Positions 1-16,343 of a stretch of 16,343 nt of DNA are shown one piece after another. Position numbers and translations under genes: made by a program. The stretch is from an uncultured Fibrobacter sp. (lineage in GTDB: Bacteria; Fibrobacterota; Fibrobacteria; Fibrobacterales; Fibrobacteraceae): positions 1 through 16,343 of the forward strand of contig CALATK010000089.1 of assembly GCA_937891805.1 (NCBI GenBank), in the 5' to 3' direction. The notes beneath the pieces were generated by a model. That model made no database searches, was not told the origin of the DNA, and saw only the letters and a program-made list of their open reading frames with translations. Position 1 is the stretch's first letter. Each line of letters begins with the position of its first letter.

Positions 1-180
1 CTCTAGCACTATTTGATTTGTAACTAATCCCTTTCTTACTAAATCAAGAGTTAATAGTTCTGTCATTTCTTTTACTATTAGTTTTGTTTTTTCATATCCA
101 TAAGGACAATGTAAAACTTGTCCAGAACTTGTACTATTAGATGTAGGTTTATATGCTTTTACACTTTCAACAGTGCAAGG
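1..180. other. AT-rich segment forming the 3' part of the polymerase gene (mosaic junction near 180)
   Basis: Counting by 60-base lines gives 30%, 25% and 35% GC for 1-180, then 52% and 60% for 181-300. The switch falls at codons for the conserved GWEPCT motif of the polymerase. AT-rich synonymous codons (AAA, ATA, TTA, AGT) replace GC-rich ones from the Pro codon at 178-180 onward. The translation remains a good polymerase, with motifs such as AYKPTSN, SSGQVL and KGLVTNQ that I associate with Firmicutes versions of this family. This could be natural recombination within a conserved motif or an assembly join between two organisms. Confidence 0.7.
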
Positions 181-975
181 TTCCCAACCCCAAGCGTGGT
201 CTATCAGGATTTCCGCATTCACGCCGAACATCTTGTACAGGGCGTCAGGTTCCTTGACGCTTACCCGAGCGATATCTCCCATGGTGTGGATACCCCGACC
301 CCGATTCAGGTGACATTTTTCCAGCCTGGCCGCGATGCCACGGCCCACCTGCCAAAAACTGGTAATGGGCTTGTGGGCCCACAGTTGCCTACGGTAACTC
401 ATCTCGTCCAGTTCCGCAATGCGCACGCCGTCGCTGTCCGCCACTACATGCTTTGCCATGATGTCCATGGCAATCTTGCACAGGTAAAGGTTCGTGCCGA
501 TGCCACCTGTGGCTGTAATTCCCGTGGTGGCAAGCACGTCCTGGATGATGGTCTTCACCAGTTCCCGAGCGGTTTTCTTGTACAGCTTCAGATACTTCGT
601 CAAGTCCAGAAAACATTCGTCGATAGAATAAGAATGAATATCTTCGGCACTTACGTACTTGAGGTAAACGTTGTACACCTTCGTGGAATACTCCACGTAC
701 CTGGCCATCTGGGGCTTCGCAATCAAGAACTCCACCTTCTCGCCGGTGCGTCGCTCCACCTCCCGGACCTTCTGGTTCACTTCGAAAAGCCGGGCCCGTC
801 CGGGAATCCCGTAAGCTTTCAGCGCAGGCGTCACCGCAAGGCAGATGGTCTTTTCGGTACGGCTCTCGTCGGCCACCACCAGCTTTGCCTTTAAGGGGTC
901 AAGCCCCCGAAGGATACATTCCACCGAGGCAAAGAATGACTTTAAGTCTATAGCGGCGAAGGTGCGGGAGGGCAT
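1..975 (-). CDS. Y-family translesion DNA polymerase (UmuC/DinB-like), C-terminus beyond window
   Basis: Error-prone polymerase that copies past damaged bases. The 325 visible residues begin MPSRTFAAIDLKSFFASVEC, with the first catalytic Asp at residue 10 and the FF/SVE palm motif after it. SIDECFLDL at 117-125 supplies the paired catalytic D119-E120, and TGGIGTNLYLCKIAMD (157-171) is the usual palm/thumb motif. A helix-hairpin-helix-like region and a GWEPCT motif (263-268) follow, then the start of the little-finger domain. Full-length relatives are about 400-500 residues, so roughly the last third is outside the window. The start is set by AAGGTGAGG about 10 bases before the ATG; this site overlaps the stop of the upstream Bat-like gene, suggesting co-transcription. 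Bases 1 to about 180 (residue 266 onward) are 30% GC against 52-60% just upstream, yet the frame runs through without a break. Assignment to the Y family is firm; UmuC versus DinB is not settled. Confidence 0.9.
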   Translation of the reverse strand, partial: MPSRTFAAIDLKSFFASVECILRGLDPLKAKLVVADESRTEKTICLAVTPALKAYGIPGRARLFEVNQKVREVERRTGEKVEFLIAKPQMARYVEYSTKVYNVYLKYVSAEDIHSYSIDECFLDLTKYLKLYKKTARELVKTIIQDVLATTGITATGGIGTNLYLCKIAMDIMAKHVVADSDGVRIAELDEMSYRRQLWAHKPITSFWQVGRGIAARLEKCHLNRGRGIHTMGDIARVSVKEPDALYKMFGVNAEILIDHAWGWEPCTVESVKAYKPTSNSTSSGQVLHCPYGYEKTKLIVKEMTELLTLDLVRKGLVTNQIVLE

Positions 976-992
976 TGGGAATGGCCCTCACC

Positions 993-1778
993 TTACCAGT
1001 CCTTAGCTGGCCGTGCCTGGCCGCGGATAGGCTTCCAGGGTTTGCGTTCGCCGTTCTGTTCGTCAAAATCTTTCAGGAGCTGTGCCGCTTCTTCCGGGCT
1101 CATCTCCCCCATCTGCACGGGCTGTTCTTCCGGTTCTTCGCCATCGTTAGAGGAATCGCCCTGGCTGTCGCTTGAACCTTCTTCGGGCTGCTCGGGTTGC
1201 GGCTGTTCGCCGGCACCGCCGTTACTGTCGGAGCTATTGCTTTCTGAGCTGCCGCCCTCCTGGCTGCTGCTGGACTGGCCGCCGCCGTTCTGGTCCTGCT
1301 CATCGGAAGCGCTTGAGGAACTTTCTGAACCGCTGGAATTGCCTTCGCCGTTCTGGTCCTGGTTTTGGTCTTGATTCTGGTCCTGGTTGTTATCCTGGTT
1401 CTTGTCGTTCTTCTTGTTTTCGTTTTTCTGCTCGTCCTTGGCCTCGTGAATACGGTCCAGGAGCATCTGCAATTTTTGATCGTTGGGGTAGTATTGCAGG
1501 CCTTCGTTACAGGTAATTTCTGCAGAGGGTAAGCGGTTCTCAATATACTGGAATGCCGCATCGCTGTAGTAGGCCGATGCCGACTTGGGAGCGGCAAAGG
1601 CAGCTGCGGACAAAAGCAAAACCATAACAATGGACCCTATCGCTGCTGTCATTCTGGAGCGTAGCGATAGAATCCAGGGTGACGAATGACTGGATCCTTC
1701 GCGGTTTCGCCGCTCAGGATGATGCGTTTCGCAATGACAATTCCGAACTCCGAACTCCGAACCCCGAATTATAATCAT
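993..1778 (-). CDS. Secreted Bat-like low-complexity protein (BatC C-terminal-like)
   Basis: A 261-residue exported protein related to the C-terminal part of BatC-type proteins of Bat (Bacteroides aerotolerance) operons. A signal-peptide-like hydrophobic stretch at 50-62 ends AAAFA. A short TPR-like helical pair covers about 70-115, followed by a Lys/Asn/Gln/Asp tract with NQDQ repeats (127-142), a long Ser/Gly/Glu/Gln-rich disordered region, and a conserved tail MSPEEAAQLLKDF...KDW resembling BatC C-termini. The start at 1778 is chosen because GGAGGT lies 6 bases before it and it overlaps the upstream stop (TGATG). However, residues 5-43 are encoded by repeats (SEFGVRN, then HPERRNREGSS...SLRSRMT), so the ancestral start may be the ATG at 1652 or 1625, which lack a good Shine-Dalgarno site. 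The role, probably with von Willebrand-domain Bat proteins outside the window, is inferred. Confidence 0.75.
   Translation of the reverse strand: MIIIRGSEFGVRNCHCETHHPERRNREGSSHSSPWILSLRSRMTAAIGSIVMVLLLSAAAFAAPKSASAYYSDAAFQYIENRLPSAEITCNEGLQYYPNDQKLQMLLDRIHEAKDEQKNENKKNDKNQDNNQDQNQDQNQDQNGEGNSSGSESSSSASDEQDQNGGGQSSSSQEGGSSESNSSDSNGGAGEQPQPEQPEEGSSDSQGDSSNDGEEPEEQPVQMGEMSPEEAAQLLKDFDEQNGERKPWKPIRGQARPAKDW
1647..1739. repeat. Dispersed repeat with hairpin, inside the 5' end of the Bat-like gene
   Basis: The unit is bounded by TGTCATT (1647-1653) and its inverse AATGACA (1733-1739), with another GAATGAC at 1684-1690 in the middle. The right half folds as ATCCT-tc-GCGG-tttcg-CCGC-tc-AGGAT (1694-1720), and the left half has CTGGA (1655-1659) facing TCCAG (1673-1677). 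Read on the minus strand it gives the HPERRN...GSSHSSPWILSLRSR type of peptide, which I recall from repeat-derived spurious N-termini in several bacterial phyla. The dispersed nature is from that recollection; only one copy is in this window. Confidence 0.6.
1737..1771. repeat. Heptanucleotide repeat array, CGAACTC type
   Basis: Consecutive 7-base units on the plus strand: ACAATTC, CGAACTC, CGAACTC, CGAACCC, CGAATTA. The array abuts the dispersed repeat on one side and the overlapped stop/start of two Bat-like genes on the other. On the minus strand it is translated as the SEFGVRN-like peptide near the start of the 993-1778 gene. Confidence 0.75.
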
Positions 1779-2515
1779 CAGATTACCTCCAGGTCGTTGT
1801 CGGTGTTGCTGGCGTCAATCTTTGCCTTGGGCTTTCGGCCAGCCTTGATTTCGATAATGTCGTCAATGCGCTGCACATGCCCGCTGAGCTGACCAGCCGT
1901 TTCGTCTTCGGCAATCAGGTTTTCCAGCATTTCCTTGCCTTCGGCATACTTGCCGTCCTTGCAAAGCTGCAATGCACGGGCCAGAACTTCCTTCGCCTTT
2001 TCGCTCAGGGGCGGCTGTTTCTGATCGTTGTTCTGGTCCTGATTCTGGTCCTGGTTCTGCTTTTGCTTGTCCAGTTCTTCTTTCAGCTTGCGCTGCACGA
2101 TTTCTACGTTCTTCTTGGCGTTTTCAAAACCGTTGTCCAGATCGATAGCCTTTTTCAAGTAGGCGACGGATTCACGCCAGGCGGCAATGCGCTCGCTACC
2201 TTCGGCAGACTTTTCACCTATGCGAAAGTGTGTATTGGCCAGATTGTAGGCCGCCTTGGCCGCCATTTTCTTGTCGGGCATGCGCACGGCGCTCTCCAAT
2301 TCCTTCTTGGCCTCGTCGTAATTGCCCAACTTGTACTGGCAAGTGCCGATATTGTAAAACAACAACGGGTTTGCAGGTTCCGCTTCCCGGGCCTTCATAT
2401 ACTTTTCCAAAGCACCGGCATAGTCGCCATTCTTAAAAAGTTTATTGCCGTCGTTTATAGGTCGCGCAAAAAGCGACACCGACAGCACACACAACAGTAT
2501 CAAAAACAATCGCAT
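1778..2515 (-). CDS. batC: BatC-like secreted TPR protein
   Basis: A 245-residue TPR protein of the Bat type, expected in the periplasm or anchored to the inner membrane. Residues 1-17 (MRLFLILLCVLSVSLFA) form a signal peptide. TPR units lie at about 18-50, 51-84 and 85-135, for example GNKLFKNGDYAGALEKYMKA and YNIGTCQYKLGNYDEAKKEL. A charged helix and a QKQNQDQNQDQNNDQ tract (151-165) follow, then another helical hairpin with a TPR-like KDGKYAEGKEMLE segment. The ATG at 2515 is preferred over the in-frame TTG at 2521 because AAGG lies 7 bases before it. The C-terminus lacks the KDW tail of classic BatC; that tail is on the next gene, which overlaps it by one base (TGATG). Bat operons usually also hold MoxR, DUF58 and von Willebrand-domain genes, and none is in this window. 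The batC symbol is provisional. Confidence 0.8.
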   Translation of the reverse strand: MRLFLILLCVLSVSLFARPINDGNKLFKNGDYAGALEKYMKAREAEPANPLLFYNIGTCQYKLGNYDEAKKELESAVRMPDKKMAAKAAYNLANTHFRIGEKSAEGSERIAAWRESVAYLKKAIDLDNGFENAKKNVEIVQRKLKEELDKQKQNQDQNQDQNNDQKQPPLSEKAKEVLARALQLCKDGKYAEGKEMLENLIAEDETAGQLSGHVQRIDDIIEIKAGRKPKAKIDASNTDNDLEVI

Positions 2516-2541
2516 TTTCAAACCTTCATCTTTGCAATGGT

Positions 2542-2571
2542 AATATACAAAAATGAGATTTATACGACCAA
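2542..2571 (-). promoter_or_regulatory. Possible promoter for the Bat-like TPR genes
   Basis: On the minus strand TTGGTC (2566-2571) and TATATT (2542-2547) are separated by 18 bases. They lie just before a short leader containing AAGG and the ATG at 2515. The -35 overlaps the last bases before the stop of the glycosyltransferase gene, so the Bat-like genes could have their own transcript. Similarity to a sigma70-type promoter is by eye only. Confidence 0.3.
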
Positions 2572-2572
2572 T

Positions 2573-4330
2573 CTATAGCAAAAGCATTAGAGCTGTCGAG
2601 CAACCACTAAAAATCAGCACAAGGAACACGCCCGCAACTCGGCGACGTACAGAGCCATTCTCGGCAAAAATTCCTTCAACCGACAAACAAATACAGGGAA
2701 TCAATACTGGAAGTATAAAGCGGAAATCATTACTGCACGAATAAGGGTATTTCAGCCTTAATGCCGCCACTGCCACAACAAACATCACTATCTGAGCAAG
2801 GGAAAGAATTGTCTTGGCATTCCACTTTATTCGCCAAAGCCCCACTAGGGCAAATCCCACAAGGCCCAACAGCGAAATACTGATAATGGTTGCAAGCCAG
2901 TTCCCTGCCGTGGTTTTCAGCAACTGGAATTCCCCGAAAAGGGATGTCTTTGCGAGATAATTCAAGAAATACTGCCGACCCATGTTGTCATCCCAGGCAC
3001 TAGTGTAAGGGTGGGTCAAGAAGTTTTCCAAATCAAAATAAAGCATATTACCCGGCTGTGCACCCACAATCAAGGCGCTGTTCAAATTCTTGGAGTTGCC
3101 CACAATATCGGGATTGAACAGAACAAGGCCTCCCACGATGCCACAAAGGGCCAAGAACAGTACAAGGCCGACATATTCCGATTTCTTCTTGCGTTCAAAG
3201 GACAGCAATCTGCTGGGAACAAAATAGACAAGGAACATCAATCCGAGCATGGCGATGGTAATGATTCCCGTGGATTTTGCCCAATAGGCCATTGTCGCAA
3301 GGGCCACTGATAAAATCACATACGCGCCATTCTTTGTAGCCATATACCGCAAAATGGCCCAAAAACAAATCACATGCGCCATGCAAAACATGGCTTCGTT
3401 GGTAACCCTCGGAGACATCATGACAAGGGACGGCCAGAAAGTCCAAAGCAAAGCGGCAAGCCAAAAACCTCCACCCGTCAAAAGCATGCGCAAGCAATAT
3501 AGCCCAAAGATCAGGGCCAATGCCGACATGATAAAACTGTACCATTGTAGCGCCCTGGGCTTGGAATAATCGAACAGGAAAGAGGCTTCCCAGAAGGGTA
3601 TTGCCGAAAGGTAATAAAGGGGTGGGTGGTAGCAGGTCCAACATTCCTTATTGTCCGGAATGCGGTGCTCGTCTGCCACAATTCCTACATACTCAATATG
3701 TCCATCTACGTCGTAGGCTCGCTGGCTGTAACTGGTATTCTGGAAATAAACCCCTCTCAAAGCCAGTCCCAACAAGAAAATCAACAGGATTCCCTTATGT
3801 AGCCGGAAGCGAGAACCGATCAAGAAAACAAGTAACCCGAAAAGAAGCGCGGCGACAATAGAAAGAGCCCGAGAACCGAAAGAGCCGGCCTTCATCAGGG
3901 CAGACAAACCTGCCGCTCCCCCATTGTTTCGGATTTTCAGGTCAAATTTATATTCGTTCTGCAATCCCGCATATTTTTCAAAATCTTGTTTTGTCAACGT
4001 GAATCCAGAAGCCCAATCACAATAGCCGGGAAAGCGCTTAGGATCTACGGACTTACCATTTATAGCCATATCCAGAACGCAATCATCGGGAACCAATTTA
4101 AGGCTCAATTCTTTAGACCATCCCGTATTCAATCCAAACTTGACAGAAAAAACTTCCCCTTGACCCATGCGTTCAAGAATCGGGAGGACAACTTCTTTTG
4201 TTTCACTCTGTCTTTCTAAAGTGACATTTTTGATGACGGGAGCTGCAGCCTTCAGTGCCACCAACACCAGCACCAGTATAAGCGTTACATATAATTCCGG
4301 ACACCTAAAAAATTTCAGGATTCTTTTCAT
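2573..4330 (-). CDS. GT-C-type integral membrane glycosyltransferase
   Basis: A 585-residue multi-pass membrane protein that probably transfers a sugar from a polyprenyl-phosphate donor on the outer face of the inner membrane. A first membrane helix at about 12-29 is followed by a roughly 120-residue extracytoplasmic domain (about 30-150) rich in short beta-like segments. About ten further hydrophobic helices start near 153. After the third helix comes AYDVDGHIEYV (206-215), with acidic residues in the position typical of the GT-C catalytic loop, and then YHPPLYYL (234-241), which matches the HPPLYY/QPPLYY pattern of PMT/ArnT-like families. The soluble domain between helices 1 and 2 is unusual, since the catalytic loop normally follows helix 1. 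It lies 13 bases downstream of the FAD oxidoreductase gene with no clear Shine-Dalgarno site, suggesting the same transcript. Donor and acceptor are unknown. Confidence 0.75.
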   Translation of the reverse strand: MKRILKFFRCPELYVTLILVLVLVALKAAAPVIKNVTLERQSETKEVVLPILERMGQGEVFSVKFGLNTGWSKELSLKLVPDDCVLDMAINGKSVDPKRFPGYCDWASGFTLTKQDFEKYAGLQNEYKFDLKIRNNGGAAGLSALMKAGSFGSRALSIVAALLFGLLVFLIGSRFRLHKGILLIFLLGLALRGVYFQNTSYSQRAYDVDGHIEYVGIVADEHRIPDNKECWTCYHPPLYYLSAIPFWEASFLFDYSKPRALQWYSFIMSALALIFGLYCLRMLLTGGGFWLAALLWTFWPSLVMMSPRVTNEAMFCMAHVICFWAILRYMATKNGAYVILSVALATMAYWAKSTGIITIAMLGLMFLVYFVPSRLLSFERKKKSEYVGLVLFLALCGIVGGLVLFNPDIVGNSKNLNSALIVGAQPGNMLYFDLENFLTHPYTSAWDDNMGRQYFLNYLAKTSLFGEFQLLKTTAGNWLATIISISLLGLVGFALVGLWRIKWNAKTILSLAQIVMFVVAVAALRLKYPYSCSNDFRFILPVLIPCICLSVEGIFAENGSVRRRVAGVFLVLIFSGCSTALMLLL

Positions 4331-4343
4331 TAAAAATACCGAT

Positions 4344-5972
4344 CTAGGCCTTCTTTCCTTCGTGGTAGTCTTCTTCGCTATTCACGCTCCAGAGGGCAGT
4401 CTTGTCGGTGGAGTTTTCACGAATGCACTTTACCACTTCCATGGCAGCAAGCATGCTGTGATCCATATTGTTGTACTTGTGCATGCCGTTACGACCCATC
4501 AGGAACAGGTTTTCTATCGGGTCTACATATTCACGAATCTTGTTAAATTCGCCATAGGTACCGAAATAAGCCGGGTAGGCCTTCTTGATATGGAACACCA
4601 CGGAATCGCGGACATCGGCTGGCCTTGCCACGTCTATCTTGTCAAGTTCGGCGATGGCGAACTTGATAAAGTCGGCATCGGGCATGCGCCACATCTCGTC
4701 GCCCTCGGTGGCGAAGTATTCGAGGCCGATCCAGACCTTTTCGGGATCGGCCACCAGGTAGGGGCTCCAGTTGTTGAAAATCTGGATGCGGCCGAGTTTC
4801 ACGTCGGATTCCTGCACATAGATCCAGTTGTCCGCCACGAACTTGAGCTTGCTTTCGGGAGTGCCTGGCCTTGCAGGGTTCTTGATAAGCAGCTTATCCA
4901 GGAGCAGCCCCACTGTGATGAAGTCTCGGTACACGAGACCTTCAGCCACGCGCTTGACTTCTGCCGGCACGGGCGTTTTTCCGTTGTCCATGGCGGCCAC
5001 AAGTTCTTTTACCGGCATAGTACTGAGGAAATAGTCACAGGAAATCGTTTCCATAGAATTCCCGCGGTCCACGACAACGCTTTCCACACGCTTGCCGTCG
5101 GTAGAGCGGTTCACGCCCACCACCTTCGAGTTCATGTGGATTTCGCCACCTTTCTCCAGCACCTTCTCGGCCACCGTTTCCCAAAGCTGTCCCGGCCCAA
5201 ATTTCGGATAGAGGAACTGGCCTATCAGGCTCGTCTCGGTATCCTTCTGGCGGATGTCCGCACCATTGGCAGCACCCGCTTCAGGCTTTTTCTTGCCCGC
5301 AAAAATCTGCTTGAGCGCATGCACCACGGTCTTGGTGATGGAAAGCCCCTTGATGCGCTGGCCACCCCAGTCGGGGCTGATTTTATTGCAGGGAACACCC
5401 CACACCTTTTCGGTATAGTCCCTAAAGAAGGTGCGGTAAAGTTCCACTCCAAAGCGGTTAATCATGAAATCTTCCAGGCTCTTTTCTTTACGGGCGGGCA
5501 AAAGCTGAACCTTGAGGTAACTCATGCCTATCTTGAACATACGCCAGAGCCCGAGGTTCCGGATGGTGTCGCCGTTCAGACTCACCGGATAATCGAAAAG
5601 CTTGCGGAGGAACAAAATACGGCTGAGGCGGCTACGACAAAGCATCACATAGTCCGTCTTTTCGGGATCGGGGCCGCCCTGCACCAGCGGTACGCTGCGT
5701 CCGATGGCGATGTCGTCCTTGCTGGCAGAGCCTTGCAACGGCAAAATCCCCTGCCACCAGTCCATCACCGTATCGCTCTTGCTAAAGAAACGGTGGCCGC
5801 CTATGTCCATGCGGTTCCCGTTATAACGGGCGGTGCGAGAAATGCCCCCGATAACATCTTCGGCTTCAAAAATCACAGGTTTCACACCTGTGGTGCGCAA
5901 AAGTTCCAGGGCTGCGGTCAGACCCGCAGGGCCAGCTCCCGCGATGACGGCGACTTTCTTTTCTTCACTCAT
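4344..5972 (-). CDS. FAD/NAD(P)-binding oxidoreductase, UDP-galactopyranose-mutase/PRK07208-like
   Basis: A 542-residue flavoprotein. The N-terminal Rossmann motif [14 protein letters not shown] starts near residue 12 and is followed by the acidic FEAED end of strand 2. GGISRT and [12 protein letters not shown] are characteristic of the amine-oxidase-like family that includes UDP-galactopyranose mutases and the PRK07208 group. The C-terminal FAD site is [15 protein letters not shown]. These enzymes are often found beside GtrA proteins and glycosyltransferases, as here. The ATG is preceded by AAGGT at 5-base spacing and overlaps the gtrA-like stop by 4 bases (ATGA). The reaction is probably an oxidation or isomerisation of a nucleotide- or lipid-linked sugar; this is inferred from context, and the actual substrate is not visible. 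Inserts at about 55-90 and 220-240 make it somewhat longer than typical UGM (about 370-400). Confidence 0.85.
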
Positions 5973-6448
5973 AGGGTACCTTGGGAATTAGGATTCTTGC
6001 TTCCCGATTTAAAAAGAATAAACTTCCTTGCTAGGAAATTGTACAGAAGTACGATTATCGCCGCTCCTACCTTGGATACCATCTCCTGAATATGGAGCAC
6101 CCCGACGAACACATACATCAACAATTCATTCAGTCCCATCCCAAAGAGACTAATCAGCACAAAAACAACCACTTCCAGAAAAACATACTTTTCCATCTTG
6201 CGCTTTTCCGTGCTGAACACCCACCTTACAGTCAGGAGGTAGTTGACCACATTCCCCGCCGCAAGACCAATTAAGTTTGAAATCAGATAATGAATATCAA
6301 AATAATAGAGGGCAATCGCAAACGCCCCAAAATCTACTACAAAGGCAAGGCCGCCAGTCACGAAATAACGCAAAAACTGACCTACAACTCCCCTTCGGCT
6401 GGGAATCTTCGATTTTATCTTTCCGAGCACGGAACTTTCGAAATCCAT
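5969..6448 (-). CDS. GtrA-family membrane protein
   Basis: A 159-residue protein with four membrane helices in the GtrA/DPMS-TM arrangement: [21 protein letters not shown] starts near residue 27, then the [20 protein letters not shown] block, a third helix [13 protein letters not shown], and a fourth ending [13 protein letters not shown]. The NYxxxRxWVF and NFLxRKFxLF motifs are hallmarks. GtrA proteins are thought to move or help move undecaprenyl-phosphate-linked sugars across the membrane. It is the first gene of a three-gene minus-strand unit, overlapping the next gene by 4 bases, and it diverges from the epimerase gene. It has no clear Shine-Dalgarno site. Confidence 0.9.
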
Positions 6449-6504
6449 ACCAAAAAAGTTAGTAATTTTACCCCCAAAGTAATTCTACACATAGGTTATT
6501 AGTC
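6449..6504. promoter_or_regulatory. Divergent intergenic region between gtrA-like and epimerase genes
   Basis: These 56 AT-rich bases separate two diverging start codons and must hold both promoters if neither gene is read from further away. On the minus strand TAAAAT (complement of 6465-6470) is a possible -10 element about 17 bases from the ATG, but no good -35 is seen. On the plus strand only AGG about 10 bases before the ATG suggests a weak ribosome site. No operator-like palindrome is evident. Confidence 0.35.
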
Positions 6505-7542
6505 ATGTCTTGTTTCCTGATTACCGGTGGCGCCGGATTCTTCGGTTCCATTCTAAAAAAAGAACTCCTTGCAAAGGGTCACAAATGCGTAAGCATCGAC
6601 CTATGCCCTGACCCGGACAAGCACGAAAACCTCACCAGCATATTGGGCGATATTCGTGACAAGGAACAGGTTGAAAAGATATTCAGCGAAAACCAGTTCG
6701 AAGCCGTGTTCCACCTGGCCGCCATGCTGGCCCACGACCGCAAGCGCATCAACAACCTGTGGACATCCAACGTAGATGGCACAGAAATTATTGCCGACGC
6801 CTGTATCCGCCACGATGTAAACAAATTTGTATTCACATCTTCAAACTGTCTCTGGGCAAAGAACTTCGACGACCCCGTTACCGAGGCCGAAGAGCCGAAC
6901 CCCATCGAGATTTACGGCAAGTCCAAGCTGGAAGGGGAAAAGATTCTCTTCGCCCGCAAGGATAAGCTAAACTCTGTCATCTTCCGCTGTCCTACCATCA
7001 TGGACGAAGGCCGACTCGGACTGCTTTCCATCCTCTTTGAATTTATTGACGAAAACCGAAAACTCTGGATGGTAGGCGACGGAAACAACCGTTACCAGTT
7101 TATCTACGCGAAGGACTTGGCCAACGCCTGTGAACGCGCCTTGAATTACCAAGGGACCACCGTATTCAACATCGGCTCGGACAACGTGAAGACCTTCAAC
7201 GAGGTGTACAGCTACGTCATCGAGCATGGCAAGTCAAAATCCAGGCTGGCCCATTTCCCCAAATGGTTTATTATCCCTTGCATGAAGCTCGCCAGCAAGC
7301 TCGGCATTTCGCCCCTCGGCCCCTACCAGTACAAGATGATTGCCAGCACCTTCGTTTTCGACACGTCAAAAATCAAGAAAGAACTGGGCTTCCAGCCCAC
7401 AAAGACCAACGAAGAAATGCTGCTCCGCGCCTATGAATTCTACCACCAGAACCGCAAGGCCATCGAACACCGCACCAACGTCTCGGCGCACAACGAGTGC
7501 GCCAAGATGGGCGTCATTCGGCTGCTGAAATGGCTTTCGTAA
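6505..7542 (+). CDS. NAD(P)-dependent epimerase/dehydratase (extended SDR)
   Basis: A 345-residue extended short-chain dehydrogenase/reductase of the nucleotide-sugar epimerase/dehydratase type. GGAGFFG at 8-14 is the nucleotide-binding glycine motif (TGxxGxxG pattern), and ILGDIRD and FHLAAM follow in the usual places. The catalytic pair is YGKSK (YxxxK), preceded by the Ser-rich TSSN strand. The later part contains the family segment VGDGNNRYQFIYAKDLANAC, where the substrate pocket lies. It diverges from the GtrA/oxidoreductase/glycosyltransferase unit, consistent with supplying or modifying the sugar nucleotide used there, although this partnership is inferred. A strong terminator follows the stop, so it is probably transcribed alone. 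Specificity (UDP-glucose, dTDP-sugar or another) cannot be read from sequence by eye. Confidence 0.87.
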   Translation: MSCFLITGGAGFFGSILKKELLAKGHKCVSIDLCPDPDKHENLTSILGDIRDKEQVEKIFSENQFEAVFHLAAMLAHDRKRINNLWTSNVDGTEIIADACIRHDVNKFVFTSSNCLWAKNFDDPVTEAEEPNPIEIYGKSKLEGEKILFARKDKLNSVIFRCPTIMDEGRLGLLSILFEFIDENRKLWMVGDGNNRYQFIYAKDLANACERALNYQGTTVFNIGSDNVKTFNEVYSYVIEHGKSKSRLAHFPKWFIIPCMKLASKLGISPLGPYQYKMIASTFVFDTSKIKKELGFQPTKTNEEMLLRAYEFYHQNRKAIEHRTNVSAHNECAKMGVIRLLKWLS

Positions 7543-7549
7543 ACAAGTC

Positions 7550-8737
7550 CTACAAATAAAATGCAGACACCAGGGCAATCATGCCTTGGTGGTCTTTTTT
7601 TGCCGTCATCTCGCGGATGCTGTGCATGCTGAGCATAGGCTCGCCGATATCCACTGTCGGGATCCCGAGGCTTGCTGAAACGGCAGGGCCTACCGTTGAG
7701 CCGCAGGGCATGTCGTTGCGCATGACAAACGTCTGATACGGAATGTTATTTTGTTCACAAATCAGCTTGAACTGGGCGTTAGAGAACACATCGCTAGCGT
7801 AACGCTTTTGCGCATTGACCTTGAGGACAATTCCACCGCCCAGAACCGGGGCGTGGTTCGGCTCGTGCTTGGCTACAAAGTTCGGGTGACAGGCGTGAGC
7901 CATGTCGATGGAAAGGGCGAGTGAATTCGGAGTTCGGAATTCGGAATTCGGAGTTAAAGAATCCAAAACACTCTTCAGGAAATTACCGGCGGCTCCTTCG
8001 CGGGTGTTGGAACCCACCTCTTCGTTGTTGAAGAAGGCAGCCACCTGAAAATCCTTCTCCGAAGGTTCCGCCTTGGCAAAGGCTTCTGCGATGGCGTGGC
8101 AGCTGGAAAGGTTGTCGAGCCTGCCGGAATAAATCCATTCGTCTTCAAAGCCGCCTGGCTGTGCAGCTTGAGCGTCGAACAGCTGCACGTCGAAATCCAG
8201 AAGACGCGCCCCACGGGGAAGCTCAGCCGACAAGGCCTCTACGAAACGTTCCTTGCCGCCAACGGCCGTCCACAAGGCGTTCAAGTCCGTCTGGGGGTTC
8301 ACCTTCAGGCCGTCCTGGTTGACGTTTCGGTTTAAGTGGACCGCAAGCTGCGGAATGCGGAACAGCTTTTTTCCACGGAACAACTTTGTCTGTACCTTGC
8401 CTTCCAGTTCGTAGGCCAAAAGTCCGGCATAACCTAGGTCACGGTCCAGCCAGCTGGCGAGAATGGGACTGCCGTAAACTTCGGGGTGGAGGGTCCGTAC
8501 GCCCGCAGCCGAACAGTCCGGATTGGGGGTGATTTTCAACGTCGGGTAGTCCGTATGGGCAAGGGCAATCCTGAACCTGGATTCTGCACTTGCCGCTCGA
8601 GGTAAACGGACCGCAATCAGCGCACCGCCACGTTCAAAAAGCTTTATTTCGGCCCCAGCAGGTTCCAAAAGCTGTTTCAGGTTCTCTACCGTATGGTAGG
8701 GCGTTACTGAATTATTCAAAAAATCAAGGAAATTCAT
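7550..8737 (-). CDS. M18-family aminopeptidase
   Basis: A 395-residue zinc-type aminopeptidase, expected in the cytosol, which removes N-terminal residues (family members prefer acidic or hydrophobic ones). All expected metal ligands are visible: H61 in AHTDYP, D208 in SGRLDN, E239-E240 in NNEEVGS, D278 in SIDMAHA and H372 in MHSIREM. It is slightly shorter than the usual 410-470. Residues 261-272 (LTPNSEFRTPNS) are encoded by a heptanucleotide repeat array and sit between the EEVGS and DMAHA motifs, where the family has a variable loop. The stop is 7 bases from the stop of the convergent epimerase gene, whose terminator overlaps this coding end. It diverges from the MCE gene over 113 bases. 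Confidence 0.92.
   Translation of the reverse strand: MNFLDFLNNSVTPYHTVENLKQLLEPAGAEIKLFERGGALIAVRLPRAASAESRFRIALAHTDYPTLKITPNPDCSAAGVRTLHPEVYGSPILASWLDRDLGYAGLLAYELEGKVQTKLFRGKKLFRIPQLAVHLNRNVNQDGLKVNPQTDLNALWTAVGGKERFVEALSAELPRGARLLDFDVQLFDAQAAQPGGFEDEWIYSGRLDNLSSCHAIAEAFAKAEPSEKDFQVAAFFNNEEVGSNTREGAAGNFLKSVLDSLTPNSEFRTPNSLALSIDMAHACHPNFVAKHEPNHAPVLGGGIVLKVNAQKRYASDVFSNAQFKLICEQNNIPYQTFVMRNDMPCGSTVGPAVSASLGIPTVDIGEPMLSMHSIREMTAKKDHQGMIALVSAFYL
7566..7601 (+). terminator. Intrinsic terminator of the epimerase gene, inside the convergent aminopeptidase gene
   Basis: ACCAGGGCA (7569-7577), loop ATCA, and TGCCTTGGT (7582-7590) form a 9-pair stem with one G-T wobble. Flanking GAC/GTC can add pairs with one bulged G. 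Seven Ts (7595-7601) follow directly. The hairpin is 26 bases after the epimerase stop and lies in the last codons of the opposite-strand M18 gene. Confidence 0.75.
7923..7957. repeat. Heptanucleotide repeat array, GAATTCG type, inside the aminopeptidase gene
   Basis: Five consecutive 7-base units on the plus strand: GAATTCG, GAGTTCG, GAATTCG, GAATTCG, GAGTTAA. This is the same family as the arrays at 1737-1771 and 11581-11639. Three units make 21 bases, that is 7 codons, so any length in multiples of three units keeps frame. Here it is translated as repeat-like TPNSEFR/TPNS residues. Confidence 0.85.
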
Positions 8738-8850
8738 GACCCAAAATTAGGTATTGAGTCCTAGAACTAGGCGCCCGATGTTAGAAATTACCCTAATCAC
8801 CAGTCATTAATCACCAAACACTGGCCAAACCTGTTTCTATATTTTTTTTC
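8738..8850. promoter_or_regulatory. Divergent region between M18 aminopeptidase and MCE gene
   Basis: These 113 bases hold a perfect palindrome CCTAG-AA-CTAGG (8760-8771) and a heptad-phased repeat (8787-8821). TATATT (8838-8843) lies only 7 bases before the MCE start codon and is followed by a run of eight Ts. No Shine-Dalgarno site precedes that ATG. If TATATT is a -10 box, the MCE transcript would have almost no leader. Promoter elements for the aminopeptidase were not recognised. Confidence 0.35.
8787..8821. repeat. Heptad-phased repeat, TAATCAC type
   Basis: Successive 7-base units: ATTACCC, TAATCAC, CAGTCAT, TAATCAC, CAAACAC. TAATCACCA occurs exactly twice, 14 bases apart. The consensus differs from that of the CGAACTC arrays, but the period and intergenic setting are the same. 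Confidence 0.5.
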
Positions 8851-9858
8851 ATGAAGCTCAAGCCCATCAAGCAGATAAACTGGATGGAGATGTCCGGCCT
8901 TTTGGTCGGTATCTTCTTTACGGTTGCCGTGATGGTGTTCGGGCTTGTGCTCTATACGAAGCTTTTTACCAGCGGAATGATTGGCGTGGAGGAGTATAAG
9001 CTCCACAGTACCTTCGACAAGGCCCTGGGTCTTAGGCCCGGCACCCGCGTGCAGATTAGCGGTGTAGATGTGGGGCAGATTTCGGACATGAAGATCGAGG
9101 GCGACGGCGTCTATATGGAATTCACCCTCCGCAAGCAATTCCAGAACTGGATTACCGACAGCGCCCAGGTGTACGCCATCCGCGACCAGAACGTGATTTC
9201 GGCCCGTGTGGTCAACATCGATGTCAAGCGCGGAAAGGGGCGTGTACTAGAAAACGGGGACTTTTTGCCGCCGGGCAAGGCACAGGACATCGAGACCGTG
9301 CTGGAGACGGCCAACGAACTGCTGGGCCGCGTGAACCAGCTTATCGATGCTGCCGATACCCTGGTGTCCATGGCCATGGATACGGGGACCACCGTCGGCG
9401 CCTTGTTCGGCTCCCGTACCCTCTACGACAACCTGAACCGACAGCTTGTGCGCCTGGACGACATTACCCTCAGCGGCACAAGGGCAATACACAAGGTTTC
9501 GGACCTGATGGATACGCTGCAGCTATCTGTTCCGCCCCTTGTGAACCGGATGGACACCGTGATGAGTAACGTCTCCGGAATGATGAACGATGTCTCGGGC
9601 ATAATGAAAGAGCTGAAGCCCCTGCCCGGAAAGGTGGATGGTCTCATGGGCAAACTTGAAGGAACGGTGGGTCGCGCAGACGACATGATTACCGAACTCG
9701 GAAAGATTACCGTCGGACTTTCGGACTTCATGGAATCTACGGAACAGACCCTGGAAAACGCGGACGAGCTGATGGAAGGCATTTCCAACATGTGGATTAT
9801 CAACCGGAACATGCCTAACCGCGACAGCATTCCCTACATGGTGGAGACCCTATGGTAA
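8851..9858 (+). CDS. MCE/MlaD-family lipid-transport substrate-binding protein
   Basis: A 335-residue protein with one N-terminal membrane helix (about 15-37) and an MCE domain (about 47-127: YKLHSTFDKALGLRPGTRV, then ISGVDVGQISDMKI). A long helical region from about 147 to 320 contains repeated short motifs such as VSGMMNDVSGIM. MCE proteins form hexamers anchored in the inner membrane and carry phospholipids across the periplasm in Mla-type systems. The permease (MlaE) and ATPase (MlaF) that normally work with it are not adjacent; upstream is the divergent aminopeptidase. They may be encoded elsewhere. It overlaps the next gene by 7 bases, so the two are translationally coupled. No Shine-Dalgarno site is seen before the ATG. 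Confidence 0.9.
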   Translation: MKLKPIKQINWMEMSGLLVGIFFTVAVMVFGLVLYTKLFTSGMIGVEEYKLHSTFDKALGLRPGTRVQISGVDVGQISDMKIEGDGVYMEFTLRKQFQNWITDSAQVYAIRDQNVISARVVNIDVKRGKGRVLENGDFLPPGKAQDIETVLETANELLGRVNQLIDAADTLVSMAMDTGTTVGALFGSRTLYDNLNRQLVRLDDITLSGTRAIHKVSDLMDTLQLSVPPLVNRMDTVMSNVSGMMNDVSGIMKELKPLPGKVDGLMGKLEGTVGRADDMITELGKITVGLSDFMESTEQTLENADELMEGISNMWIINRNMPNRDSIPYMVETLW

Positions 9859-10622
9859 ATAGAATCTTCGCCCTGGCCCTGGTCCTTGTTTTTTCGGGAA
9901 TGAGTTTCGCTTCCGAGTCTTCGACGCTGGCCTTTCGCGCCCAGAAGTCCATAGCCAACGGCAAATTCGCCAAAGGTTACGGCCAGCTGGAACGAGCTCT
10001 GCTTGCAAGCCGCAAGGAAGCCGATTTGGCCTCCGAAGGACGGGTCTTGCTGTCTATGGCGAGAGTCCGTATCATGAGTCTGGACCTGAACTTCGCGGAT
10101 TCCCTACTGAAAGTGGTGCGTCCCGAAGCCCTGGACGAAAATTCCGCATTGATGCTCAACCAGTCGAAAGTTGCCCTGGCCAACGCCCGGGAAAAATACG
10201 GCGACGCCGAAAAGATTTGTCGCTCCATTGACGACGGCGATATCAAGAAACGAGACGAAGCCCTGAAGGCCGCCTACTATTCGGAATGCGCCATCGCCTA
10301 CGCTGGAGCGGGCCACGAAGACGAAGCCAACGCCGCCCTCAAGATGACGGGCAAGAACAGCGACACGGACGGAGGCTTTTACGCCTACACTGCGGCAAAG
10401 GTCAAACGGCTATTGGGAGACTCCGAAGCCGAAAAACTATACAAGACGGCCGAAGAAAAATCCATCAAGAGCAACTACACCTACATGACCGCCACAATTC
10501 TCTGGGAACGTTCCTTAATCAAGGGAGTTCCGCAAAAAGAAAAAGACGACCTGCGGCTCCGCTGCAAGAACGCCTTTGAACTGATGGGGCTGCCCAACAA
10601 CGCCAAGCGCTGCGGAAAATAG
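9852..10622 (+). CDS. Secreted TPR-like protein partnered with the MCE gene
   Basis: A 256-residue protein of unrecognised specific family. Residues 1-20 (MVNRIFALALVLVFSGMSFA) form a signal peptide ending in an Ala-X-Ala-like site, so it is probably periplasmic. The rest is almost entirely alpha-helical, with TPR-style helix pairs (ANGKFAKGYGQLERALLAS; NAREKYGDAEKICRSI; LLGDSEAEKLYKTAEEKS). There is no lipobox cysteine. Its start lies inside the MCE gene in another frame, and this tight coupling suggests a shared role, perhaps as an accessory of the lipid transporter. That is inference from position only. Confidence 0.8.
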   Translation: MVNRIFALALVLVFSGMSFASESSTLAFRAQKSIANGKFAKGYGQLERALLASRKEADLASEGRVLLSMARVRIMSLDLNFADSLLKVVRPEALDENSALMLNQSKVALANAREKYGDAEKICRSIDDGDIKKRDEALKAAYYSECAIAYAGAGHEDEANAALKMTGKNSDTDGGFYAYTAAKVKRLLGDSEAEKLYKTAEEKSIKSNYTYMTATILWERSLIKGVPQKEKDDLRLRCKNAFELMGLPNNAKRCGK

Positions 10623-10624
10623 GC

Positions 10625-10652
10625 GTTAGGTTTTAGATTGTAGGTGTTAGGG
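10625..10652. repeat. Heptad-phased repeat, GTTAGGT type
   Basis: Four successive 7-base units: GTTAGGT, TTTAGAT, TGTAGGT, GTTAGGG, starting 3 bases after the stop of the TPR-like gene in a convergent intergenic region. Confidence 0.55.
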
Positions 10653-10677
10653 CTGATGGCCGCAAGAGGCTTCAGCC
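10651..10677. terminator. Hairpin between convergent genes, possible bidirectional terminator
   Basis: GGCTGA (10651-10656) pairs with TCAGCC (10672-10677). Inside, GGCC pairs with GGCT with one G-T wobble around the loop GCAAGA, leaving one unpaired T. It lies between convergent stop codons, but no T-tract follows on either strand, so intrinsic termination is doubtful. Confidence 0.35.
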
Positions 10678-10695
10678 GTAGGTTGCAAGATGCCG

Positions 10696-11574
10696 CTAGT
10701 TGCTGGTCGTATCGGTTGCAGCGGCGACAGTATCCGCTGCGACGGCATTGATTACCGTAGAATCAGCTTTCGTCGAATCCACCGCCGTTGAATCGGCGGG
10801 CTTCACCTCTTCGGGCTTTTTCAGCTGCAATAAGTGATTGTATGCCTGGACAGGAGAAATCTTGCCATCGGCAAACAGGTCGATAGTGTTTTGGACATCG
10901 TTGTACACCGTAGAATCCGCACCTTGCCTTAAGCTACGGTACCCGAGAACTCGGAAAGTTTTGTTGTAAAAACTGCTCCGGAATTTCTTGAAACGGGGCT
11001 GCATCACGTCGTTCAGTATCATTTCGACAGCCGTTTCCGTCTGCATGGTATCCAGTTCAAAAGTCCGGTAAATGGTGCGGATATGGGGCGGAATGGTGGT
11101 GTCGGGACTGTCGAAATAAGGCCGCATAATATTTGCTGCCTTGGTCTTGTTGGGGTAGGGGCTCTTGGAAAGCCGCAAGGCGTGAGCCACGGCCAACCGC
11201 CAGTATTGAGGATAAGTTCTCAGTGCCCTGTCCATCACGATATAATCGGTGGTGTCCTTGGAATCCATCTGAGTCATGGCGCTCACAAAGTAGTAGGGAG
11301 TGTAAAACAAGCTATCCAGTTCTGTGCAGAGGTTCGCCACGTGGCTCAGGTAAGCATACTCCTTGCCACTCAAGAAACTGTCCCCAAGTTCCGTAAGGCC
11401 CTTGATCCAGAAAAGTCCTGCCACCGAAGCGTCGTTCCCTGCGGCGATATACCTCACGTAGTTAGCCTTCGGCAAGAACGACTCGTCGAAATTAGTGCCA
11501 GGGAGCGGCTTCGCATAATGGAAGGCCGTCGCAATGACCACTATGGCTAATATGATGATGGCAAGGAAACGCAT
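10696..11574 (-). CDS. Membrane-anchored helical protein of unknown function
   Basis: A 292-residue protein I do not recognise. MRFLAIIILAIVVIATAF is an N-terminal membrane anchor or uncleaved signal. A mostly helical body with TPR-like pairs follows (for example YIVMDRALRTYPQYWRLAVAHALRL) and is rich in Tyr and aromatic residues. From about 255 the tail is low-complexity Ala/Asp/Ser/Thr (DSTAVDSTKADSTV and so on). The start at 11574 is chosen because it puts the charged residue directly before the hydrophobic segment. The frame stays open to an ATG at 11640, but those 22 extra residues (MNSELGIDFSNSELRIPNSEL) are translated repeat. Neither start has a good Shine-Dalgarno site. It is probably the last gene of the ispA-dxs-trmH-pyrF unit, 75 bases after pyrF. 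Confidence 0.75.
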   Translation of the reverse strand: MRFLAIIILAIVVIATAFHYAKPLPGTNFDESFLPKANYVRYIAAGNDASVAGLFWIKGLTELGDSFLSGKEYAYLSHVANLCTELDSLFYTPYYFVSAMTQMDSKDTTDYIVMDRALRTYPQYWRLAVAHALRLSKSPYPNKTKAANIMRPYFDSPDTTIPPHIRTIYRTFELDTMQTETAVEMILNDVMQPRFKKFRSSFYNKTFRVLGYRSLRQGADSTVYNDVQNTIDLFADGKISPVQAYNHLLQLKKPEEVKPADSTAVDSTKADSTVINAVAADTVAAATDTTSN

Positions 11575-11580
11575 GGTTAG

Positions 11581-11639
11581 TTCGGAGTTCGGGATTCGGA
11601 GTTCGGAATTAGAAAAATCAATTCCTAATTCCGAATTCA
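11581..11639. repeat. Paired heptanucleotide arrays in opposite orientation, forming a hairpin
   Basis: Units TTCGGAG, TTCGGGA, TTCGGAG, TTCGGAA (11581-11608) are followed, after a short AT-rich spacer, by inverse-oriented units CAATTCC, TAATTCC, GAATTCA (11619-11639). TTCGGAATTAG (11602-11612) and CTAATTCCGAA (11625-11635) form a perfect 11-base stem with a 12-base loop. This fills most of the gap between pyrF and the next gene. It could affect mRNA stability or partial termination, but there is no T-tract. Confidence 0.75.
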
Positions 11640-11649
11640 TAAATCTGAA

Positions 11650-12555
11650 TTAAATATCGCAGGCCTCCGCGAGTTTTTCGAGGGCGTCGATGCAGTCGCT
11701 TGCGAAGTTCGCCGGGTTGCCGGTGCGCTGGTAGGCAAAATTCAGGCCGCTACTGCTGTTGAGAACATGGAACTTGCGTTTGCCGCCGCCGTTGGCAATG
11801 GCGGTAAGTACCGTCTTGGCGTCGCCGCCCTGACCGCCGGGCACGCCCGGAATGGACACGCCAGGAATCAGGAAGGGAATTTCGTGCTTGTGGGCTACGG
11901 TGTAGGCCGTTATCTTTTCAAGCTCTTCAGGATGGGTGGCTCCGACGACTGCGCCCAGGTATCCGAAGTTTCCGTCCCATTCCATAATCTTGTCGGCTAC
12001 GGAATAAAACGCTTCGGCCTTGTCCCGAGGGTCGTCGCTACGGACCACAGGCAGGTCCTGAAAATCGTGGGCGCCCTTGTTGCTGGTGCGAAGCAGCACG
12101 TAGGCGCCATGTTCGTCGGCGTTCGTTTCGGAACTGCGGATAAACGGCCCTACGGAATCGGCGCCCATCCAAGGAGAAACCGTCACGGCGTCCGCCTTGT
12201 AAACATCGTAGGCGGCGGTGGCGTAGGCGGCGCTGGACTTGCCGATATCACCGCGCTTGGCGTCGAGAATCACCGGAATGCCTGCGCTCCGGTAATCGGC
12301 AATCAACTGTTGCAGCACCAGCATGGCCTGCACGCTCACGCATTCGTAGTAGGCACTGTTGGGCTTGACTACGGCGGGCTGCACGCCCCGCTTCAATGCG
12401 CATTCCAAAATTTCGGAATAGAAACGCTTGATCTTGTCTTCGGCAGAGCCATCGGGGCAGCAGGGGTCAATCAGCTTGAGCACAGGATCCATGCCCAGGC
12501 AAATCGGGTTCCCGCACTTGGCAATGCGTTCTTCTAAACGAGCCTGAAAGTTCAT
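11650..12555 (-). CDS. pyrF: Orotidine 5'-phosphate decarboxylase, type 2
   Basis: Last step of de novo UMP synthesis: converts OMP to UMP and CO2 in the cytosol. The 301 residues fit the longer type 2 subfamily (about 270-310). CLGMDPVL near 19 and VKPNSAYYE near 63 begin the barrel, and VILDAKRGDIGKSS (95-108) carries the catalytic Asp-x-Lys-x-x-Asp set. VTVSPWMGADSVGPF and FLIPGVSIPGVPGGQGGD cover the phosphate-binding end. GAGGAG lies about 8 bases upstream of the ATG. The start shares one base with the stop of the methyltransferase gene (TAATG), so the two are translationally coupled. Confidence 0.96.
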   Translation of the reverse strand: MNFQARLEERIAKCGNPICLGMDPVLKLIDPCCPDGSAEDKIKRFYSEILECALKRGVQPAVVKPNSAYYECVSVQAMLVLQQLIADYRSAGIPVILDAKRGDIGKSSAAYATAAYDVYKADAVTVSPWMGADSVGPFIRSSETNADEHGAYVLLRTSNKGAHDFQDLPVVRSDDPRDKAEAFYSVADKIMEWDGNFGYLGAVVGATHPEELEKITAYTVAHKHEIPFLIPGVSIPGVPGGQGGDAKTVLTAIANGGGKRKFHVLNSSSGLNFAYQRTGNPANFASDCIDALEKLAEACDI

Positions 12556-13814
12556 TACTTCAGCTCCTCTTGAATCTGGGCGGCCTCGTAGCTGAGAATA
12601 CCGTGGGCTACCGCCACGTTCAGGGATTCCAGTTCGCTGCTCATGGGAATCTTTACCGTCTCGTCGGCAAGCTCGATAAAGTAGGGGTTGGTACCCGCAC
12701 CTTCGTTACCCACCAAGAAAGCCATCTTGCGGAGCTTGCGTTCCGGAATCTGGCGCAGGGACTGCTTGGCATGCAGGTCGGTCGCAATAATCGTGTATCC
12801 CTTGCTGCGCAAGAAATTAATCTGGTCAATCAAGTCCACGTCAAATTCGAAAGGCACGCGGAGGAAAGTTCCCGATGAGCCGCGGACCACCTTGGGGTTG
12901 AAGGGGCTCACGGTACCGCGGCCAAGAATCATGCCGTCAGAACCGAAGCCGAGGCTCGTGCGGAACAGCGTTCCCAAGTTGCCCGGGTCCTGTACCGCAT
13001 CTACAAGAGTCAGCACGCTGCGGCTGGATTCATAGTTGGGCTTGGTATTTGCAATACGGCAATGGGCGATAATACCCTGAGGAGTCACCGTAGAGCTGAT
13101 CTGCTTCATCTGGTCGGCAGGCATGTCATGGAGGGTGATCCCTGCCTCGTTGATGAGGTCCAGCAATGTCTGGTCCTCGAAACCTTCGACGGCGTAAACG
13201 GCAATAACCAGCTCCCGGTGGTTCTTCACCAGCTCGGTCACCACATGGACGCCTTCGCCCAAGAAACGGCCTTCGCGCTCGCGGCCCTTTTCTGTGGTGA
13301 GGGCCAGGAGCTTCTTGAACCAGGGCGGATTGCCGGCGGTTTCTTCTACGGTTTCCGCCTGGGCCGCGCGGGCTTCCAATACGGACTCGTCCAGGTTCTC
13401 GTCCTGGAAGGCGTCGGACTTTTGTTCCGGACGCTGGCGGTAAATGGGCCTGCTGGATTTTTCAAAACCGGCCTTGTCGTACCCGCGGAAAGGGCGGTCT
13501 CCATCGCGGCGGCGGTCATGACCGAACCTTTCGGAGCGGCCGAAGGGCCTGTCGTCAAAACGACGGGGACGGCGTTCGCGGTCAAAGGGCTTGCGCTCGC
13601 GGTCGAAACGGCGTTCCCCTGTGCGGCCTTCACGGAGGCTTCCGTCTTCGCGAAGTCCACGGGGGCGGTCACCACGAGGGCCACGGCCAAATTCCCTATC
13701 ATCGCCGGTTCTTTCTTCGCGGCGGGGGCGGCGTTCATCACGGCTTTCGCTGACGCCGAATTTGCGGTCCAAAGTTTTCCTTATGGTACGCGGGGTCTTG
13801 TTTTCTACGCTCAT
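12555..13814 (-). CDS. TrmH/SpoU-family RNA 2'-O-methyltransferase with Arg-rich N-terminal extension
   Basis: Transfers a methyl group from S-adenosylmethionine to a ribose 2'-OH of rRNA or tRNA. The C-terminal SPOUT knot shows all three motifs: VDAVQDPGNLGTLFRTS (271-287), AFLVGNEGAG (365-374) and VKIPMSSELESLNVAVAHG (387-405). A substrate-binding L30e-like domain at about 163-250 (KGREREGRFLGEGVHVV) matches RlmB/TrmH relatives. The first about 130 residues are an addition: a disordered Arg/Asp/Glu/Gly stretch with repeats such as RDERRPRREER and FDRERKPFDRERRPRRFDD, so the 419-residue length is well above the usual 240-280. The ATG overlaps the dxs stop by 4 bases (ATGA), with GGA 7 bases upstream. 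Exact RNA target unknown. Confidence 0.92.
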   Translation of the reverse strand: MSVENKTPRTIRKTLDRKFGVSESRDERRPRREERTGDDREFGRGPRGDRPRGLREDGSLREGRTGERRFDRERKPFDRERRPRRFDDRPFGRSERFGHDRRRDGDRPFRGYDKAGFEKSSRPIYRQRPEQKSDAFQDENLDESVLEARAAQAETVEETAGNPPWFKKLLALTTEKGREREGRFLGEGVHVVTELVKNHRELVIAVYAVEGFEDQTLLDLINEAGITLHDMPADQMKQISSTVTPQGIIAHCRIANTKPNYESSRSVLTLVDAVQDPGNLGTLFRTSLGFGSDGMILGRGTVSPFNPKVVRGSSGTFLRVPFEFDVDLIDQINFLRSKGYTIIATDLHAKQSLRQIPERKLRKMAFLVGNEGAGTNPYFIELADETVKIPMSSELESLNVAVAHGILSYEAAQIQEELK

Positions 13815-15679: not shown

Positions 15680-16343
15680 TACTTAACCCGGGTGATAATG
15701 AATGCGGCTATGGCCCGAAGGATTTCGGTATCGCAGGAAAGGGAATCCAGAGACTTGATGGACTCTTCGAAGAGTTCCTTGGCCTTTTCCCTGGAGCGGT
15801 CAAGCCCCACCACGGAGGGGTAGGTGGCCTTGCCCTTCTCGATGTCGGAACCAGCATCCTTGCCCAGTTCTTCGGTAGTGGAGACAATGTCCAGGATATC
15901 GTCCACAATCTGGAACGCAAGCCCGATGGACTTGCCATACCTGCGGATGACCTGGATGTCGGCATCGCTTGCACCGGCAAGCATGGCGCCTACCTGCAAG
16001 GCCGCCTCGATAAGGGCCGCCGTCTTGTGGTAATGGATGTAGTCCACCGTTTCCAGGTCTACTTCCTTGCCTTCGCACTCGATGTCGATCATTTCGCCGC
16101 CGATAAGGCCGTAGGTGCTGAGCAGGTGTGCAAGGACTTCGATTGCACGGGCGTTTCCCGTCTTGCCCATGAGTTCAAAAGCGAGCACGCAAAGGGCATC
16201 TCCTGCCATTACGGCCGTAGCCTCGCCAAACTGCTTGTGGCTGGTGGGCTTGCCCCTGCGGAAGTCGTCGTTGTCGATACAGGGCAGGTCGTCGTGAATG
16301 AGGGAGAAGGTGTGGATCATCTCCAGGGCGACCATGGCAAGCT
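15679..16343 (-). CDS. ispA: Farnesyl diphosphate synthase / short-chain polyprenyl synthase (N-terminus beyond window)
   Basis: Condenses isopentenyl diphosphate with DMAPP and then GPP to give FPP. The visible part lacks about the first 75-80 residues and runs off the right edge in frame (Leu-Ala before the internal Met at 16335). EMIHTFSLIHDDLPCIDNDD carries the first Asp-rich motif in the DDxxxxD form typical of bacterial FPP synthases, followed by RRGKPTSH. GLIGGEMIDIECEG, HKTAALIEAA and the second Asp-rich motif FQIVDDILD follow. GKDAGSDIEKGKATYP is the usual C-terminal block. It heads the group of overlapping genes with dxs, an arrangement found in many bacteria. GGE replaces the commoner GGQ. 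Confidence 0.95.
   Translation of the reverse strand, partial: LAMVALEMIHTFSLIHDDLPCIDNDDFRRGKPTSHKQFGEATAVMAGDALCVLAFELMGKTGNARAIEVLAHLLSTYGLIGGEMIDIECEGKEVDLETVDYIHYHKTAALIEAALQVGAMLAGASDADIQVIRRYGKSIGLAFQIVDDILDIVSTTEELGKDAGSDIEKGKATYPSVVGLDRSREKAKELFEESIKSLDSLSCDTEILRAIAAFIITRVK

What the first reader, a model, noticed from the sequence alone, without database searches (positions are those of the whole stretch)
1..300. In-frame GC mosaic inside a DNA polymerase gene
The Y-family polymerase changes from 52-60% GC to 25-35% GC at about base 180 with no frame break, exactly at the conserved GWEPCT motif. The AT-rich end encodes family-typical residues but with codons unlike the rest of the window. 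Either a gene from a distant donor recombined within a conserved motif, giving a hybrid polymerase with a foreign little-finger domain, or the assembler joined two organisms at a short conserved sequence.
Basis: partly seen in the sequence, partly recalled or inferred. Interest (0 to 1): 0.7.

Follow-up and report, generated by a model that had tools for sequence, protein, structure and literature searches.

The report
Assembly join inside polymerase gene
The start of this Fibrobacter contig most likely carries about 185 bases from a different bacterium, joined by the assembler at a short conserved stretch of a DNA repair polymerase gene, so the apparent hybrid enzyme is probably not a natural protein.

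Summary
The composition break is real: window 1-185 is 30.8% GC, below each of 15,973 other 185-base windows, and third-position GC falls from 0.70 to 0.10 in frame. The minus-strand gene (1-975) is a Y-family polymerase whose two parts have different owners. Bases 186-16343 match four genomes of the Fibrobacter genus at 87-97% in long blocks. Bases 1-178 match 0 of 41 Fibrobacterota genomes, but 1-190 match a genome from the order of a Clostridia MAG at 87%. The 62 tail residues are identical to those of P0121, a 499-residue polymerase with a different, 61% identical head. In 80 genomes of the genus no listed tail exceeds 57% identity, and 0 of 240 listed homologues are hybrids. The best switch point is base 185-186, inside the conserved LIDHAWG codons. 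The foreign part runs off the window after 185 bases. Best explanation: a chimeric contig end. Weak points: no reads, base 1 as contig end is inferred, held parents share at most 19 identical bases there, and AU tree tests did not reach 0.05.

The parts
1..975 (-). Y-family DNA polymerase gene, open at the window start (325 residues seen)
   Evidence: ORF; PF00817 IMS, E 1.4e-27, residues 9-171; best NCBIfam hits are DNA polymerase IV/V models, all below their cut-offs
187..975 (-). Fibrobacter-type head, residues 1-263
   Evidence: 95.2% DNA identity to L002 over 179-975; 106 consecutive bases, 186-291, identical to L002
1..186 (-). Clostridia-type tail, residues 264-325, AT-rich
   Evidence: 87% DNA identity to L098 over 1-190; 62 of 62 residues identical to P0121; 0 of 41 Fibrobacterota genomes match 1-178
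185..204 (-). Interval in which the switch can lie, according to the Fibrobacter parent used; 185-186 with the closest one (L002)
   Evidence: two-parent mismatch count

Best explanation
Chimeric contig end. An assembler following a Fibrobacter chromosome into the conserved LIDHAWG codons of a Y-family polymerase gene continued into the homologous gene of an AT-rich Clostridia-type bacterium in the same sample, and the contig stopped about 185 bases later. Shown: the two sides have different owners, the place of the switch, the absence of this hybrid from what was searched, and the existence of the identical tail in a polymerase with its own head. Inferred: that the join arose in assembly rather than in a cell or a library, that window base 1 is a contig end, that both organisms were in one sample, and that the true parents share a longer identical stretch than the ones held here.
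For: 0 of 41 Fibrobacterota genomes match window 1-178, while 5 of 5 chosen Clostridia-type genomes do and G066 matches 1-190 at 87%. Around the switch, L002 agrees at 131 of 137 bases on the head side and 83 of 178 on the tail side; L098 at 72 of 137 and 156 of 178. One switch at 185-186 leaves 27 mismatches of 315, against 101 for pure L002 and 87 for pure L098. Tails in 76 of 80 genus genomes are 43-57% identical, 4 gave no match. 0 of 240 listed homologues are hybrids. Residues 264-325 are identical to P0121, whose head is 61% identical to the window's (173 of 283 columns, counted). 186-16343 lies in Fibrobacter gene order. The two groups can share up to 19 identical bases at the switch. 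Chimeric contigs are a known product of metagenome assemblers (passages of PMC8171044 and PMC5264255).
Against: The closest held parents (L002 and L098) share only 8-base runs at the switch. Among 234 pairs of Fibrobacter loci and loci of the donor's order the longest shared run is 19 bases (2 pairs), slightly short of the smallest k-mers that I recall for common assemblers (21 or more). Runs of 21-24 bases (7 of 1,368 pairs) occur only with loci outside that order, 6 of 7 of them with Bacteroidales-type records. The frame is kept and the join falls at homologous codons, as homologous recombination would also give. AU tests did not reject swapping the sides at 0.05 (p 0.48 and 0.69; 0.079 and 0.112).
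Confidence: 0.86

Rival explanations
1. Natural hybrid: a Fibrobacter strain recently acquired the little-finger part of a Clostridia-type Y-family polymerase by recombination inside conserved codons, giving a hybrid enzyme.
For: In-frame, at homologous codons, no residue lost. The tail keeps codon usage of its source, as a very recent transfer would.
Against: None of the listed tails in 80 genus genomes exceeds 57% identity; 0 of 240 listed homologues are hybrids; 87% DNA identity to a held genome and 62 of 62 residues shared with P0121 demand a very recent event; the foreign part runs off the window after 185 bases, so no return to Fibrobacter DNA is seen. Identical stretches between held parents are short, which also disfavours homologous recombination.
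Confidence: 0.05
2. Chimeric molecule or read: the join was made during library amplification or sequencing, and one such read extended the contig end.
For: A short shared stretch suffices for such events (recalled), and held parents share only 8-19 bases. 185 bases is about the length of one read or merged pair (recalled).
Against: Nothing here separates it from an assembler join; the sequencing method is unknown.
Confidence: 0.09

Closest known systems
Interspecies chimeric contigs of metagenome assemblers (passages of PMC8171044 and PMC5264255 seen)
   Same: Non-overlapping parts of one contig match different organisms, with the switch in sequence that the two have in common.
   Different: Those passages speak of closely related or evolutionarily similar species; here the two organisms are of different phyla and the shared stretch is one gene motif.
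Fibrobacter Y-family polymerase (P0001, P0004; 462 residues)
   Same: Residues 1-263 of the window are 99% identical to P0004.
   Different: Fibrobacter-headed proteins continue HAWGYEPCTIADIK; their tails are 40-49% identical to the window's.
P0121, a 499-residue Y-family polymerase of Clostridia type
   Same: 62 of 62 tail residues identical.
   Different: Head 61% identical, with gaps against the window at two places. Its organism and DNA were not seen.

Membership tests
Interspecies chimeric contig | Non-overlapping parts match different organisms | tested here: met
Interspecies chimeric contig | Switch lies in sequence identical in both parents and at least one k-mer long | tested here: inconclusive
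   True donor DNA not held; longest run 19 bases among 234 pairs with the donor's order
Interspecies chimeric contig | Reads do not support the join, or depth changes there | not testable with these tools
   No reads; the window's own assembly is not held
Natural hybrid gene | Same hybrid in an independent genome | tested here: not met
   0 of 240 listed proteins; none of the listed tails in 80 genus genomes above 57%; lists are capped, so lower-ranked cases are not excluded
Y-family DNA polymerase | IMS catalytic domain | tested here: met
   PF00817, E 1.4e-27

The most novel reading that the evidence does not exclude
A very recent natural transfer replaced the little-finger half of a Fibrobacter translesion polymerase with that of a Clostridia-type neighbour through a short shared stretch, making a cross-phylum hybrid error-prone polymerase.
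Probability: 0.05. Interest if true: 0.55.

Novelty: not a real feature. Interest (0 to 1): 0.06.

Why it matters
As an artefact it is a quality-control case: a short in-frame cross-phylum join at a contig end makes a plausible hybrid protein, recognisable by a sudden change of codon usage. If natural, it would be a cross-phylum exchange of the lesion- and template-binding domain of an error-prone polymerase (domain role recalled).

Tried and rejected
Phage or plasmid source of the tail: no match of window 1-178 (distant mode, E 1e-5) in 50,697 phage or 72,556 plasmid records; one exact degenerate pattern for 12-13 tail residues found 0 viral contigs. Exact donor DNA: not found; best of 385 genomes drawn from the order of G042 is G066 at 87%. 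Narrower searches round G066 gave 3 of 6 genomes of its genus at E 1e-3 and 1 of 13 of its family at E 1e-40, with nothing better. The metagenome collection was not open to scans. An AT-rich domain normal for Fibrobacter: rejected, since Fibrobacter loci differ from the window at about half of the tail bases (82-83 of 178 agree, 4 loci).

Results against my reading. AU tests: head held with the Clostridia side, lnL 0.73 lower, p 0.48; tail held with the Fibrobacter side, lnL 5.25 higher, p 0.69 (the window tail was identical to P0121 in that set)., without P0121: lnL 31.4 lower, p 0.079, and 14.0 lower, p 0.112. The free trees put head and tail in different groups in both calls. Shared runs at the switch are at most 19 bases with the donor's order.

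Rows dropped: one search used 18 of 120 and 25 of 120 proteins, part chosen, the rest drawn at random from the longer ones. One search used 18 Fibrobacter loci and 21 of 23 intended others; 2 gave no parsed protein. One search kept 94 of 113 aligned loci after a motif check, and its 76 non-Fibrobacter rows include L093-L097 and L104, which repeat L025 and four other loci. One search used 13 loci of the donor's order, all those held after leaving out the repeats.

Full report
Observation. The minus-strand gene at 1-975 is open at the window start (325 residues) and has the IMS domain of Y-family polymerases (PF00817, E 1.4e-27). NCBIfam's hits are DNA polymerase IV/V models, all below their cut-offs. 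Bases 1-185 are 30.8% GC, below each of 15,973 other overlapping 185-base windows (minimum 36.2%); GC3 is 0.10 in the tail and 0.70 in the head. The frame is not broken.

Owner of the head. Residues 1-268 are 90.3-98.5% identical to 15 Fibrobacter-type loci (L001-L015); DNA identity to L002 over 179-975 is 95.2%. Named records among these are Fibrobacter, except L013, titled Clostridiales; names given in the protein search, where given, are Fibrobacter or plain function names. Window 186-16343 matches G001, G003, G017 and G023 at 87-97% in long blocks on one contig each; in G001 and G003 about 1.4 kb of other DNA lies between the polymerase and the next gene.

Owner of the tail. Window 1-178 matches 0 of 41 Fibrobacterota genomes; the same query matches 5 of 5 genomes chosen because their loci were similar, so the search can find such tails. 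With 1-190, 167 of 385 genomes from the order of G042 (the genome of L025, titled uncultured Clostridia bacterium) match at E 1e-3; many are short. By my count of the listing, 65 rows from 63 genomes reach E 1e-17, at 72-87% identity over 123-190 bases; G066 is best, 87% over all 190. The tail residues are identical to those of P0121 (59 of 59, 62 of 62), whose head is 61% identical (173 of 283 columns, counted). In the window's genus, 76 of 80 genomes give a tail match, 43-57% identical; 4 give none.

Switch point. Bases 186-291 are identical to L002 (106 bases); the first difference towards the tail is base 185. L002 then L098 with one switch at 185-186 leaves 27 mismatches of 315; pure L002 leaves 101 and pure L098 87. 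With other Fibrobacter parents the interval widens to 185-204. At residue 264 the window has W; 18 of 18 Fibrobacter loci have Y, and of 13 loci of the donor's order 9 have W and 4 Y.

Is the hybrid found elsewhere? Of 240 listed homologues (120 from a whole-protein search, 120 from a tail search), 0 combine a head of 80% or more with a tail of 65% or more. Tails of the 120 Fibrobacter-headed ones are 40-49% identical, heads of the 120 tail-like ones 57-71%. The lists are the best 120 of 7,997 and of 6,583 matches, so lower-ranked hybrids are not excluded; a hybrid like this one would have ranked above the 89% seen at the top.

How the join could arise. The codons LIDHAWG are conserved. Among 1,368 pairs of 18 Fibrobacter and 76 other loci, 80 share 15 or more identical bases there, 27 share 19 or more, and 7 share 21-24; none of those 7 involves the donor's order. 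Among 234 pairs with 13 loci of that order, the longest run is 19 bases (2 pairs), and L002 with L098 shares 8. The true donor's DNA was not found, so whether the real parents share a full k-mer is open. Smallest k-mers of about 21 are recalled, not looked up. Passages of PMC8171044 describe chimeric nodes as sequence in common between two similar species and give chimeric contig length ratios of 0.279 (Megahit) and 0.516 (metaSPAdes) on one simulated set; a passage of PMC5264255 says assemblers tend to join sequences of different species.

Verdict. Chimeric contig end by assembly 0.86, chimeric read or molecule 0.09, natural hybrid 0.05. The double origin and the lack of the hybrid in what was searched are shown; that the join is technical, and that base 1 is a contig end, are inferred from the 185-base length and the open window edge. 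The AU tests did not reach 0.05.

Noticed in passing
window 1645-1775, 7920-7970, 10619-10675, 11578-11660: Dispersed repeat-like stretches with many short matches elsewhere in four genus genomes (27-59 matches per genome in all, long blocks included).
   Followed up: partly
window 7920-7970: One such stretch lies in frame inside the ORF 7550-8737 (looks like an M18-type aminopeptidase, recalled), as TPNSEFRTPNS; L111 and L113 have the same residues and L112 a variant.
   Followed up: partly
L013 (LVAK01000053.1): Record titled Clostridiales bacterium Firm_05 carries a Fibrobacter-type polymerase (head 90.7%, tail 41% to the window): perhaps a misbinned contig.
   Followed up: no
P0036, P0046, P0048, P0059, P0069, P0084: NCBI names for these Y-family polymerases read 'DNA methylase', apparently a propagated misnaming.
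   Followed up: no
genome G014, contig C125:4972-5292: A second, partial polymerase match (residues 1-107, 94% identical, open frame 117) beside a full gene on C19.
   Followed up: no
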